From: Thermomicrobiales bacterium | GTDB taxonomy: Bacteria > Chloroflexota > Chloroflexia > Thermomicrobiales > UBA6265 | NCBI GenBank assembly: GCA_020432165.1 | Contig: JAGQGU010000014.1 | Coordinates: 1,174 to 47,140 of the forward strand | Direction: 5' to 3' | Length of the DNA stretch: 45,967 bases | Shown: in pieces, positions 1-39,809 of the stretch | Position numbering within the stretch: the stretch's first letter is position 1 | Layout of the letters: the number at the start of each line of letters is the position of its first letter | Position numbers and translations under genes: made by a program | The notes under the pieces: model-generated | Database searches by the model: none | Told to the model about the DNA's origin: nothing | What the model saw: the letters and a program-made list of their open reading frames with translations, nothing else

Positions 1-7
1 GGGATAA

Positions 8-47
8 ACCCTGGGGCTACGTTCTCCGGCACCCTGGGGCTACGTTC
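8..47. repeat. Tandem copies of the CGTAGCCCC-type repeat at the window edge
   Basis: The 17-mer accctggggctacgttc occurs at 8-24 and again at 31-47. Read on the minus strand, both contain GTAGCCCCAGGGT, which belongs to the same family as the GTAGCCCC palindromes seen near 2880, 31373, 39732, 39783 and 43482. The rest of 48-172 holds no gene that I can support. Confidence 0.6.
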
Positions 48-2766: not shown

Positions 2767-2790
2767 CGCCCAGCAACTCCCAGGCTACCG

Positions 2791-2998
2791 ATTGTTCGGC
2801 TGATTCCTCCCCTTCGCGTTGCTCAGGGTTCGGAATGACGTTGCAATCATCGAATCTCGCCGACCAGTACTCTCCAGTCGTAGCTCCGCGGTTGACCCGC
2901 GGGGGTGGAGGTGGGAGCATGCGTATCTGGCCTCTGGCAATGCCACCAATCGTTCGGTTGATTCCTCCCCTTCGCGTTGCTCAGGGTTCAGAATGACG
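2791..2998. repeat. Pair of 48-bp direct repeats around a GC-rich palindrome
   Basis: Two near-identical segments containing cctccccttcgcgttgctca and then gggttcRgaatgacg lie at about 2791-2839 and 2951-2998. Between them is cgtagctccgcggttgacccgcgggg (2879-2904), a member of the GTAGC palindrome family seen elsewhere in the window. The gap 2767-3010 between convergent genes has no believable ORF and is filled by these repeats. Confidence 0.75.
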
Positions 2999-22886: not shown

Positions 22887-22905
22887 GGTTTTCACGACAT
22901 CTCTC

Positions 22906-22939
22906 GATTGAACCCAGGGTTGATCCCCTGGGTTCAATC
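22906..22939. repeat. Perfect 14-bp-stem hairpin between convergent genes
   Basis: GATTGAACCCAGGG pairs with CCCTGGGTTCAATC around a 6-nt loop (ttgatc). There is no T-run on either side, but the position between the convergent exporter and thiY-like genes suggests a two-way transcription barrier. The loop-side sequence GGGTTGATCCC resembles the GTAGCCCC palindrome family. Confidence 0.6.
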
Positions 22940-22954
22940 GTCCAACTCCGCCAC

Positions 22955-30944: not shown

Positions 30945-33746
30945 ATGGCAGCAAACCGCCCGCAACCCCGCCTGGATTTCGGCAGTGCGCGTAACTGGAA
31001 TACCATCGAAGCCAACGCCCGCAAGTTCGTAAGCGAGTGGAAAGATGCGGAAGGATACGAGCGTGGCGAGAGCCAAAGCTTCTGGAGCGATTTCCTTACC
31101 GTCTTCGGAATCGACCGCAAGCGTGCCGGTGCCTTCTTCGAATATCGCACCCGTAAGCTCTCCGGTGCGCCCGGTTTTGTCGATCTCTTCTGGCCCGGAC
31201 GCCTCGTGGCCGAGCAAAAGTCCGCCGGACGCGACCTGAACAAGGCGATCGAGCAGGCGCTTGATTATCTTCCTGCCATGCCCGACCACGAACTTCCCCG
31301 TGCTATCGTCGCCAGCGATTTTCGTACCTTCGATCTCGTGCGACTCGATCGCGTCGGCTCGGGACTGCAGAACGTAGCCTCGGGGTTGATCCCCGGGGAT
31401 GGAAGAGTCACCTTCACGCTGGAGCAACTCCCTGATCGCGTGAAGCTTTTCGACTTCCTCTTCGATCTCGATGAATCGCTACTGAGCGAGCAGAATCCGG
31501 TCAATGTCAAAGCTGCGCAGGATATCGCCAAAATCCATGAGCATCTGGAGAAACGCGGCTACACAGGTAAAGATCTGGAGATATTCCTCACCCGTATTGT
31601 TTTCTGCCTTTTCGCCGAGGACACCGGTATCTTTGCGCCAATGCAGTTTTATCGCTATGTACGCGACGAATCTAACGCCGATGGGCGCAATCTGGGCGGC
31701 GCGCTGCGTGATCTCTTTGAAGTGCTGAATACTTCGCCCGACCAGCGCATGCAAAGCGATCTCAACGAGTTTCCATATGTGAACGGCGGACTCTTCGCTG
31801 ATCCTATCCGCACACCGCAACTCGATGCCGATGTGCGCCACGCGATTCTCACCGCCAGCACCGGCAATGACTGGAAGGATGTGAATCCGAGTATCTTCGG
31901 CTCCATGTTCCAGGGAGTGATGAATGAAACCGAGCGTCGTAACCTCGGTGCCCATTACACCAGCGAGAAGAACATCCTTCGGCTGATTCAGCCATTGTTC
32001 CTGGACGATCTCTATGCCGAGTTCGATATCGCGAAGAACAGCCGCAATCGGCTCGAACGCTTCCACGACAAGATCGCGAACCTCAAGTTCCTTGATCCTG
32101 CCTGCGGGAGTGGCAACTTCCTCGTGATCACCTATCGCGAACTCCGTCGCCTGGAACACAAGGTCCTGAAAGAGTTGCTCGGCGACCAGACATTCGGACT
32201 CGATATGGCTCATCTGATTCGGGTGACGCCAGACCAGATGGCAGGTATCGAACTTGAGGAGTTCCCCGCCAAGGTGGCGCAACTGGCGCTGTGGCTAACC
32301 GACCATCAGATGAATATCGAGGCTGCCAAGACCTTCGGTGGCTCCGTCGATCTCTATATGCGTATTCCTATCAAGAGTCACCCTCGCATCGTCCACGCCA
32401 ACGCCCTCACGACCGATTGGGGAGACGTCGTGGAACTCAGCGATCTGGACTATATCATCGGCAATCCACCGTTTGTCGGAAAACACTATCGTACTCGCGA
32501 AATGTCCGACGAGTTGGCATCACTTTTCAATGGCATCAAAGGAGCGGGAAACCTCGATTACGTGGTGGGATGGTATATCAAAGCCGCCAGATGTATGGAG
32601 CAGAACTCAGCGATTCGTGCGGCATTTGTGTCCACCAACTCCATTTCCCAGGGGGAACAGGTAGCCGCCTTGTGGTCAGCTCTTAGGTCCTATGGGATTC
32701 AGATTTCGTTTGCACACCAGACATTCCAATGGCGGAACGAGGCGCCTGGTGTTGCAGCAGTACATTGTGTAATCATCGGCTTTCAGATTGGCAAACCCAC
32801 AAAACGACGATTGTTTACTTACGATTCCATCAAGAGTGAACCTACTGAACAACTTGTGGCGAACGTAAGCCCATACCTCGTCGAAGCGCCAAGTGTTGTT
32901 GTCGAAAAATCAACCAGACCTCTTTCGCCGGGGGTTCCTCTATTAGGTAATGGAGGTAAACCTGTTGAAGGTGGACATCTGCTCCTGACAACTGCGGAAA
33001 GAGATGCACTATTGGGACAGGAACCCATGGCCGGTGAGTATGTCCGCCCATTCACAATGGGAGATGAGTTCATCAATGGGCAGGAGCGATGGTGTTTGTG
33101 GCTCGAGAATGCAGACCCTGGGAAAATTCGTCAAATGCCAGAGGTCTTGAAACGTGTTGATCTTGTGCGCGAATACCGGCTGAAAAGTACAAAAGCTGCA
33201 ACGCGGGACCTTGCGAAATACCCAATGAGATTTGCCGAGATTAGGACGTCGTCGCTGCCCTACCTGGCCATTCCCAAGGTTTCATCGGAGCGACGTGAGT
33301 ATATCCCAATGGGCTACCTACATCCGCAGGTTGTCCCGGGGGATAAGGTGTTCTTCTTACCGGAAAGCTCCCTTTACGCGTTCGGCATCCTTACTTCGAA
33401 TATGCACATGGCCTGGATGCGAACGGTCGCGGGACGGCTCAAGAGCGACTACAGCTATTCGATTCAGATCGTCTACAACAACTTTCCCTGGCCGGAGGAT
33501 GTGACCGACGCGCAGCACCAGAAAATTGAGCAGTTGGCCCAGGCCGTGCTAGATGCACGCGCCAACCACCCCGGCAGCACCCTCGCCGATCTCTACGATC
33601 CACTCGCCATGCCAGCCGACCTCCGCAAAGCCCACACCGAGCTAGATCGTGCCGTGGACAAGCTCTACCGCTCGAAGAAGTTTGAGAGTGATGATGAACG
33701 CGTCGCGATGTTGCTGGCTCGGTATCAGAAGTTGGTGGGTGAATAG
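30945..33746 (+). CDS. MmeI-type (type IIL) restriction-modification enzyme
   Basis: A 933-residue single-chain restriction and methylation enzyme. The N-terminal nuclease has D-x9-E-x-K in VDLFWPGRLVAEQKSAGRD (about residues 78-96), the MmeI spacing. A helical linker leads to the N6-adenine methyltransferase with motif I LDPACGSGNFLVI (about 383-395) and motif IV DYIIGNPPFVGKHY (about 502-515). The C-terminal part holds the target-recognition domain and a conserved SDYSYSIQIVYNNFPWPE segment. Base composition drops to AT-richer sequence at about 32.55-33.4 kb, over the recognition domain, which hints at exchange of that part. A GC-rich palindromic repeat lies in frame at 31373-31398. Confidence 0.9.
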   Translation: MAANRPQPRLDFGSARNWNTIEANARKFVSEWKDAEGYERGESQSFWSDFLTVFGIDRKRAGAFFEYRTRKLSGAPGFVDLFWPGRLVAEQKSAGRDLNKAIEQALDYLPAMPDHELPRAIVASDFRTFDLVRLDRVGSGLQNVASGLIPGDGRVTFTLEQLPDRVKLFDFLFDLDESLLSEQNPVNVKAAQDIAKIHEHLEKRGYTGKDLEIFLTRIVFCLFAEDTGIFAPMQFYRYVRDESNADGRNLGGALRDLFEVLNTSPDQRMQSDLNEFPYVNGGLFADPIRTPQLDADVRHAILTASTGNDWKDVNPSIFGSMFQGVMNETERRNLGAHYTSEKNILRLIQPLFLDDLYAEFDIAKNSRNRLERFHDKIANLKFLDPACGSGNFLVITYRELRRLEHKVLKELLGDQTFGLDMAHLIRVTPDQMAGIELEEFPAKVAQLALWLTDHQMNIEAAKTFGGSVDLYMRIPIKSHPRIVHANALTTDWGDVVELSDLDYIIGNPPFVGKHYRTREMSDELASLFNGIKGAGNLDYVVGWYIKAARCMEQNSAIRAAFVSTNSISQGEQVAALWSALRSYGIQISFAHQTFQWRNEAPGVAAVHCVIIGFQIGKPTKRRLFTYDSIKSEPTEQLVANVSPYLVEAPSVVVEKSTRPLSPGVPLLGNGGKPVEGGHLLLTTAERDALLGQEPMAGEYVRPFTMGDEFINGQERWCLWLENADPGKIRQMPEVLKRVDLVREYRLKSTKAATRDLAKYPMRFAEIRTSSLPYLAIPKVSSERREYIPMGYLHPQVVPGDKVFFLPESSLYAFGILTSNMHMAWMRTVAGRLKSDYSYSIQIVYNNFPWPEDVTDAQHQKIEQLAQAVLDARANHPGSTLADLYDPLAMPADLRKAHTELDRAVDKLYRSKKFESDDERVAMLLARYQKLVGE
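31373..31398. repeat. GTAGC-type palindrome embedded in the MmeI-type gene
   Basis: cgtagcctcggggttgatccccgggg is the same element type as the intergenic copies at 39732, 39783 and 43482. It is read in frame as the peptide NVASGLIPGDG at about residues 143-153, between the nuclease and the linker region. Confidence 0.7.
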
Positions 33747-33765
33747 GATTGAATGGAAGAGTGCC

Positions 33766-34458
33766 ATGACAGGAAATACGCTTCTAGACTGGATTTTGGC
33801 GTTGGGGTTCCCTTCGCTCGTGGGCGTTGTCGTGACGAGCATTTTCGATCTCAAGCGTGATGTGAGGCGGCTGAAGAAGGAGCTTGAGGTTGAGGAAAAG
33901 CGAGAGCAGTTTGAAGAGCGACAGTTGGCGCAGACGCAGAAGCACACAATGGCGGCAATGCGTCTTCAGGAGCGAGTAACTCATGAGTCCAATATAGTGC
34001 GCGCCGAACTCCAGAGAGAACAGCAATGGATTGATCTGTATCATTCGAGTCTGCAACTAACTATTCAGAAACTGAGACAGCTTTCAGACATATCTCGTGG
34101 CCTAATAAGACAACGTTCTGTGCTTGCGGCTCAAGACTGGACAACGGTGGAGGACGAAAAGCTTGCACGAGATCTGCATGAAGAAGCGCTGGCTGTGGCA
34201 CGTGAGATTGAATTTGCCATCATTATCTTAGGGAAAGGTGCCATTGCGAAGGTTGCCAAGGACGCTGTTGACAAAGGGAGAATATTTGTCGAGAAGGCGG
34301 ACCGCAATGAGCCAACACAAGAAGCTCTGGATGATTTCGATGTAGCTTTGAGTAGTTTCTACGGTCAAGCAGCGGAATCGGTACAGAATCTTAGAGTCGA
34401 CATGTCCGTCGGTAGGTATCGTTTGGAGCAGGAATTCTGGGAGGATGCGGCAACCTAA
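33766..34458 (+). CDS. Membrane-anchored coiled-coil protein of unknown function
   Basis: A 230-residue protein with one N-terminal membrane helix (TLLDWILALGFPSLVGVVVT), a charged coiled coil (LKRDVRRLKKELEVEEKREQ and following, to about residue 90) and a helical C-terminal half. I do not recognise the family. It starts 19 bp after the restriction-modification gene in the same direction, and its composition is AT-richer than that of most of the window, suggesting that it moved with a defence cassette. No catalytic motif is visible. Confidence 0.65.
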   Translation: MTGNTLLDWILALGFPSLVGVVVTSIFDLKRDVRRLKKELEVEEKREQFEERQLAQTQKHTMAAMRLQERVTHESNIVRAELQREQQWIDLYHSSLQLTIQKLRQLSDISRGLIRQRSVLAAQDWTTVEDEKLARDLHEEALAVAREIEFAIIILGKGAIAKVAKDAVDKGRIFVEKADRNEPTQEALDDFDVALSSFYGQAAESVQNLRVDMSVGRYRLEQEFWEDAAT

Positions 34459-35452: not shown

Positions 35453-35566
35453 AAAACTCGAAGACACCCCAAGCCGATTTCTCGGCCTGGGGTTCCCCGA
35501 TCCCCGGGCATAAAGCCCGAGGCTACATTTGCATTGGTCACCGCATATCAAATGCGGGGCTACGGG
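35453..35566. repeat. Cluster of hairpins behind the capsid gene
   Basis: CCCCAAGCCGA/TCGGCCTGGGG (35467-35491) forms a long stem. On the minus strand it is followed by tgtcttcgagttttt, so it may end transcription of block C. GGGC-ataaa-GCCC and CCGCAT-atcaa-ATGCGG (35541-35557) follow, joined to GAGGCTAC and GGGGCTAC strings of the palindrome family. The remainder of 35231-35452 shows no gene. Confidence 0.55.
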
Positions 35567-39731: not shown

Positions 39732-39809
39732 CGTAGCCCCGGAGTTCACCTCCGGGGTTTGTAGCGTCATTCCGAAGCCAACCGTAGCCCCGGAGTTTAC
39801 CTCCGGGGT
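39732..39809. repeat. Two copies of the CGTAGCCCCGGAGTT palindrome
   Basis: cgtagccccggag and then ttcacctccggggt lies at 39732-39758; a copy with a single base change lies at 39783-39809. Each can fold as CCCCGGAG/CTCCGGGG-type hairpin. They fill the gap between the reductase pair and the ABC exporter. Confidence 0.8.

What the first reader, a model, noticed from the sequence alone, without database searches (positions are those of the whole stretch)
31373..31398. Palindromic repeat inserted in frame in a restriction-modification gene
cgtagcctcggggttgatccccgggg, otherwise an intergenic element in this window, is translated as NVASGLIPGDG inside the MmeI-type enzyme. Mobile palindromes that settle inside coding genes are known from Rickettsia but are rarely noted elsewhere. 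It shows that the element moves and tolerates translation.
Basis: partly seen in the sequence, partly recalled or inferred. Interest (0 to 1): 0.5.

Follow-up and report, generated by a model that had tools for sequence, protein, structure and literature searches.

The report
REP palindrome inside restriction enzyme gene
A short mobile hairpin repeat, normally found between genes in this bacterium, has landed in frame inside a restriction enzyme gene and four other genes, two tRNA synthetases among them, where it should be read as extra loop residues; this is a clean new case of something already described in other bacteria.

Summary
The 26 bases at 31373-31398 are one of 98 copies (up to 3 mismatches; reversed control 0) in the 3.2-Mb own genome: an 8-bp hairpin with a GTAG foot and strong stem covariation, i.e. 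a GTAG-type REP element. It is read in frame as residues 143-152 of an intact 933-aa MmeI-type enzyme. All 25 homologues aligned lack the residues; 16 are exactly 15 residues shorter there. A structure model puts them in a low-confidence turn.

It is not alone: 11 of 98 copies, in five genes (MmeI, IleRS, TyrRS, NFACT, DUF2298), are in frame, all sense. Sister species G156 has copies at the IleRS and both NFACT sites, but not the TyrRS insert or the five-copy DUF2298 array. A RAYT-like transposase gene 0.4 kb before the window start has copies on both sides.

So the element has moved and appears to tolerate translation (no peptide data). Intragenic GTAG REPs, tRNA synthetases included, were described in 2013, so 'rarely noted outside Rickettsia' is too strong. 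New member of a known kind. The sense-strand bias is the most interesting residue.

The parts
31373..31398 (+). REP element copy (foot CGTAG, 8-bp stem with one T.G pair, 5-nt loop) read in frame as residues 143-152 of the MmeI-type enzyme
   Evidence: 43.8 bits; -15.3 kcal/mol, stem as drawn
31353..31397 (+). 45 bp (15 aa, VGSGLQNVASGLIPG) absent from homologues; placement within a few codons is ambiguous; about 19 bp at its 5' side are not part of the repeat consensus
   Evidence: coordinates worked out by hand from the codons
30945..33746 (+). MmeI-type restriction-modification enzyme gene, open throughout; D80, E90, K92 nearly invariant and NPPF (507-510) invariant in the 20-protein alignment
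2879..2904 (+). intergenic copy of the same REP family
35502..35527 (-). intergenic copy
35539..35564 (-). weaker intergenic copy (27 bits)
39732..39757 (+). intergenic copy, 14 bp after the called upstream gene
39783..39808 (+). intergenic copy, tandem with the preceding one
1..21 (-). part of a copy cut by the window edge (C67:1166-1194), outermost of the copies around the RAYT-like gene that lies just outside the window on the same contig (Pfam match C67:461-706 in a frame ending at 736; window starts at C67:1174)

Best explanation
The 26 bp is a GTAG-type REP element (a small non-autonomous hairpin repeat) that inserted into the MmeI-type gene in frame, into a turn between two strands of the N-terminal domain, where it is carried as extra loop residues without breaking the enzyme's domains. 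Shown by sequence: the repeat family, its hairpin, the in-frame position, the absence from homologues, and other in-frame insertions present or absent between sister species. Inferred: that a RAYT tyrosine transposase, such as the one 0.4 kb before the window whose gene is flanked by the same repeats, moved it as single-stranded DNA; that the residues are translated; and that selection removed frame-shifting and stop-creating insertions (TAG in the foot closes one of the three sense frames), leaving tolerated loop insertions.
For: 98 copies against 0 control. Stem: of 784 pair cells in 98 copies, 753 Watson-Crick, 15 G.T, 16 mismatched, with compensatory types at 7 of 8 pairs (43 of 64 distinct copies). 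All 25 homologues aligned are shorter at the site, 16 by exactly 15 residues; solved MmeI too. Other in-frame hosts: IleRS, TyrRS, NFACT (3 copies), DUF2298 (5 copies). IleRS insert in own and G156 but in none of 21 other relatives aligned, same-genus G155 and G157 included. DUF2298 array absent in G156, 81% identical upstream. Pattern copies in 3 of 32 family genomes, all of one genus. RAYT-like gene with copies on both sides. Model: block pLDDT 69 and 53 for residues 131-150, between strands 128-133 and 154-158, with a short helix 141-145 drawn in between.
Against: No intact MmeI gene closer than 54% identity was found, so the empty site is inferred from distant homologues; G156 keeps only a C-terminal remnant. 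19 bp of the excess are unexplained. The RAYT-like protein scores 66.4 bits against the curated cut-off of 80 for REP-associated transposases. G156 has many copies but no close orthologue of that gene (best 36-37% identity). No transposition, transcript or peptide data.
Confidence: 0.85

Rival explanations
1. Chance: a GC-rich coding stretch that happens to resemble the intergenic repeat, with the loop length being ordinary variation.
For: The loop does vary among homologues (55-65 residues in the aligned block), and about 19 bp of the excess do not match the repeat.
Against: All 26 bases fit the repeat pattern; 98 hits against 0 in the reversed control; 0.07 expected in the window for the core; the same element sits in frame in four other genes.
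Confidence: 0.03
2. The repeat spreads without a transposase, by recombination, gene conversion or replication slippage between copies, and the RAYT-like gene nearby is only another host of REPs.
For: Tandem arrays with regular spacing (five copies at 42 bp in DUF2298) look like local duplication; G156 has at least 76 model matches without a close orthologue of the RAYT-like gene.
Against: Single copies sit in unrelated genes with unrelated flanks, which needs an insertion step; two RAYT-like genes are each flanked by family copies.
Confidence: 0.15
3. The inserted residues were co-opted and are now kept for a function in the protein.
For: In G156 IleRS four of the eight shared codons differ from ours only synonymously and one by an amino-acid change; G156 has a longer repeat-rich insert there.
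Against: Those IleRS changes keep the hairpin perfectly paired through two compensatory pair changes, so they can equally reflect a REP variant, a conversion or selection on the hairpin. NFACT site 1 shows two amino-acid changes and no synonymous one. Five unrelated proteins fit tolerance better.
Confidence: 0.05

Closest known systems
GTAG REP superfamily (Di Nocera et al. 2013, PMC3733652; abstract, sections 5, 15 and part 1 of 17 read, passages)
   Same: GTAG foot outside a short stem-loop, many copies, clusters, location between unidirectional and convergent genes, flanking RAYT genes, some units inside ORFs including tRNA synthetases; the paper lists Chloroflexi among the phyla and T. roseum GTAG-23
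Rickettsia palindromic elements (RPE; passages on them in PMC10969869 and PMC3733652)
   Same: Palindrome inserted in frame in unrelated protein genes
   Different: The first-described RPEs are about 150 bp and encode a longer conserved peptide; the short RPE-4 and RPE-6 are counted by PMC3733652 among R. conorii intragenic repeats, where CGTC repeats are the abundant type; ours is 26 bp, GTAG-footed and linked to RAYT-like genes
RAYT / TnpA-REP transposase (PMC8266576, passages)
   Same: Y1 protein with an MPDHVH (HUH-type, recalled) motif whose gene has REP hairpins on both sides
   Different: Scores under the curated NCBIfam cut-off; no activity data

Membership tests
GTAG REP elements | Unpaired GTAG-like tetranucleotide at one end | tested here: met
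   In the 43 distinct copies of A1 columns G2, T3, G5 are invariant and A4 is at least 90%
GTAG REP elements | Stem of 5-13 bp, loop of 2-20 nt, complementary changes in the stem | tested here: met
   8-bp stem, 5-nt loop; covariation 0.391 against 0.121 shuffled, 0 of 500 (43 of 64 distinct copies); all 98 copies
GTAG REP elements | Dispersed, mostly extragenic, in tens to thousands of copies | tested here: met
   98 by pattern, at least 146 by model; 86 of 98 outside called genes, 6 of these at locus edges
GTAG REP elements | Copies flank a tyrosine transposase (RAYT) gene | tested here: met
   Y1 match C67:461-706 with copies at 73 and 168 before and 771, 868, 921, 1071, 1166 after; C105 gene with two copies on each side
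RAYT (REP-associated tyrosine transposase) | Family profile NF047646 over its cut-off | tested here: inconclusive
   66.4 and 69.6 bits against a cut-off of 80, E 2.4e-18 and 2.6e-19; PF01797 over its cut-off
RAYT (REP-associated tyrosine transposase) | Cuts and moves REP single strands | not testable with these tools
   Needs biochemistry
CGTC REP elements | CGTC foot | tested here: not met
   Foot is CGTAG in the consensus
Rickettsia palindromic elements (the first-described, about 150-bp type) | About 150-bp palindrome with a conserved encoded peptide | tested here: not met
   The shared unit is 26 bp; resembles RPE in behaviour only; RPE sequences were not compared
MmeI-type restriction-modification enzymes (host gene) | N, helical spacer, methyltransferase, target-recognition and C domains in one chain | tested here: met
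   All five Pfam MmeI domains over cut-off; E 3e-263 to 5hr4

The most novel reading that the evidence does not exclude
REP insertion is strand-coupled: copies enter with the GTAG hairpin on the coding strand of a transcribed (or co-directionally replicated) gene, so gene bodies are sampled in a fixed orientation and the element acts as a recurrent generator of Pro-Gly loops in proteins. Sense orientation holds for all five clear host genes of the own genome and for 21 of 25 one-orientation gaps between unidirectional genes, with none in the 18 divergent gaps of the same loci; one ambiguous antisense copy near a methylase start and G156, not significant alone, are the exceptions.
Probability: 0.2. 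Interest if true: 0.6.

Novelty: new member of a known kind. Interest (0 to 1): 0.38.

Why it matters
It shows in one genus, with filled and empty sites, that a transposase-linked hairpin can add residues to a restriction enzyme and to proteins usually essential, such as two tRNA synthetases. It gives ready-made filled/empty gene pairs and a predicted tryptic peptide for testing how proteins tolerate, and perhaps adopt, mobile DNA, and how RAYT-linked elements choose strand and target.

Tried and rejected
Other long ORFs over copies (L113, L118, L120, L123, L135 forward frame): no Pfam match; treated as spurious frames; in L123 the called genes lie on the other strand on either side of the copy. 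L135 reverse frame: an antisense copy lies at residues 21-29 of a 409-aa DNA methylase ORF whose Pfam domain begins at 63; an ATG lies inside the copy and the true start is unknown, so it is not counted as in-gene. L270 (G156): codon signal but no Pfam match; dropped. Of the 56 own model matches beyond the 98 pattern copies, 48 were examined and gave no clear in-gene case; of 58 in G156, 49 were examined. Model matches elsewhere in both genomes (list cut) were not fetched, so the in-gene census is complete only for the 98 pattern copies.

Rows dropped before counts: of 34 homologous ORFs, 9 that do not reach the N-terminus were left out of the 25; loci L066-L088 were not aligned. Relatives aligned: TyrRS 20 of 25 loci, IleRS 22 of 29, NFACT 24 of 29, the rest being mostly partial or weak matches. 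Two rows of the 25 come from one strain (L034, L053).

Searches for a closer MmeI relative: class genomes, genome contigs, viral contigs (2 loci, 47 and 44%, neither with the insert), plasmids (465 records, all under 60%; table only). G156 and G137 hold only MmeI fragments that miss the site. No exact match of a narrower form of the repeat pattern in viral contigs.

Against a simple story: the TyrRS loop is variable among relatives (42-57 residues against 51), so only the 7-residue difference to G156 is firm; the codon-based gene caller was trained on 9 window ORFs and is crude; only 3 of the 5 DUF2298 copies pass its two-sided test, while one search puts all five inside the gene; loci in the orientation test were chosen for holding copies; the same test in G156 (7 same, 2 opposite, 7 convergent, 1 divergent; called in-gene 2 sense, 1 antisense) is not significant. 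My first reading that the IleRS hairpin is lost in G156 was wrong; one search shows it intact.

Full report
What is there. The 26 bases at 31373-31398 are exactly as described and lie in a 933-aa ORF with all five MmeI Pfam domains and E 3e-263 to solved MmeI, 5hr4. The ORF is open; D80, E90 and K92 are nearly invariant and N507-P-P-F invariant among 20 aligned proteins; that these are nuclease and methyltransferase residues is recalled. The frame reads NVASGLIPGDG.

More than chance. The pattern with up to 3 mismatches occurs 98 times in the 3.2-Mb own genome and its reversed control 0 times. Over the 98 copies, 753 of 784 stem pairs are Watson-Crick, 15 G.T and 16 mismatched, with compensatory pair types at 7 of 8 positions. 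A 43-sequence subset (of 64 distinct; most of the badly paired ones left out) gives a covariation score of 0.391 against 0.121 shuffled, 0 of 500. A covariance model built from it finds at least 146 matches in the own genome, 76 in G156, 6 in G155 and 0 in G157 at E up to 0.1; only 150 candidates per genome were scored, so these are lower bounds.

Empty in homologues. In the aligned block our protein has 73 residues and 25 homologues have 55-65, 16 of them exactly 58 (9 of 34 homologous ORFs were left out because they do not reach the N-terminus). So 15 residues (45 bp) are extra, about 24-26 bp being the repeat. The 20 bp before it occurs nowhere else in the genome with up to 3 mismatches and is unexplained. 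The predicted structure puts the stretch between strands 128-133 and 154-158, with block pLDDT 69 and 53 and a short helix at 141-145 (mean 84.4). The best full-length relative is only 54% identical, so the empty site is inferred at a distance.

Not alone. Eleven of 98 copies lie in frame in five genes: MmeI (1), IleRS (1), NFACT (3 at two sites), TyrRS (1), DUF2298 (5 in a 42-bp array); 9 of the 11 also pass a two-sided codon test. All are sense. Three sites encode VAPGxxPG-like and three SPGVxPRG-like peptides; the third sense phase, which meets TAG in an intact foot, is not seen. One more antisense copy near the start of a methylase ORF is ambiguous.

Filled and empty sites. The IleRS insert is in own (66 residues in the block) and G156 (76), and in none of 21 other relatives aligned (58 each), including same-genus G155 and G157. 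The G156 copy differs at five of eight codons, four synonymously, yet its hairpin is perfectly paired through two compensatory pair changes, with further partial copies behind it; so it may be a REP variant, a conversion, or hairpin-conserving drift. Both NFACT sites of G156 also hold in-frame copies; at site 1 the G155 gene has none. The second-site copy in G156 folds poorly. The TyrRS insert is absent from G156 at 86% identity. The DUF2298 array is absent from G156, 81% identical upstream. Pattern copies occur in 3 of 32 family genomes, all one genus: 98, 22 and 1.

A candidate mover. Six Y1-transposase matches were found. One at C67:461-706, in a frame ending at 736, 438 bp before the window, has family copies at 73 and 168 before it and 771, 868, 921, 1071 and 1166 after it; another, on C105, has two copies of a variant on each side. 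Both resemble REP-associated tyrosine transposases, below the curated cut-off. Two others have different GTAG hairpins on both sides. Against a neat pairing, G156 has many copies but no close orthologue of the C67 gene.

Placement and strand. Counting each gap once, own copies lie in 21 convergent gaps, 21 unidirectional gaps with the repeat in gene direction, 4 against, 3 mixed, and 0 divergent, although 18 divergent gaps exist in the same loci (two-sided p 0.0009 for 21 against 4; 6 copies at locus edges not placed). G156 gives 7 against 2 and one divergent gap, not significant alone. Published GTAG REPs also prefer unidirectional and convergent gaps (PMC3733652, section 15 read). Whether transcription or replication direction sets the bias was not separated.

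Known or new. Di Nocera et al. 2013 (abstract, sections 5, 15 and part 1 of 17 read) describe GTAG REPs in Chloroflexi among others, RAYT flanking, and REPs inside ORFs of several species, tRNA synthetases included, and discuss loops as tolerant sites. Rickettsia palindromic elements are the better known case (passages). So this is a new member of a known kind. I saw no paper on this family or on MmeI genes carrying REPs in the listings, but none of these searches asked for MmeI by name and the longer lists were cut.

Noticed in passing
L130, ORF residues about 805-845 (G000:C99, DUF2298 gene): A second, longer repeat (about 115 bp, 11 further places in the own genome by protein match) also sits in frame in the same DUF2298 gene and falls in the alignment gap of G156.
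   Followed up: partly
window 2784-2840 and 2942-2998: A 57-bp repeat (91% alike) on both sides of the REP copy at 2879; similar sequence ending in GGAATGACG recurs beside several other REP copies.
   Followed up: no
G000:C31:52607-52876 and C26:37277-37534 (L140, L141): Other Y1 transposase genes have different GTAG-footed hairpins on both sides, suggesting one REP type per transposase.
   Followed up: partly
L258 (G156:C63) about 2095-2417: In the sister genome the MmeI gene is reduced to a C-terminal remnant with two REP copies just upstream of it.
   Followed up: partly
window 22905-22940: A 15-bp perfect hairpin (-27.4 kcal/mol) without the CGTAG foot, core CAGGGTTGATCCCCTGGG, between two convergent ORFs, perhaps a terminator.
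   Followed up: partly
G156 loci L235 and L232; own L100, L109, L129, L131: Some copies overlap gene ends so that the repeat seems to supply the last residues or the stop codon.
   Followed up: no
L259:1578-1646 (G156 IleRS): The IleRS insert of the sister species holds a full hairpin plus further partial repeats, so the site seems to have grown in that lineage.
   Followed up: partly
window 33739-34455: A called gene overlapping the end of the MmeI gene; the longer ORF 33649-34458 has no Pfam match.
   Followed up: no
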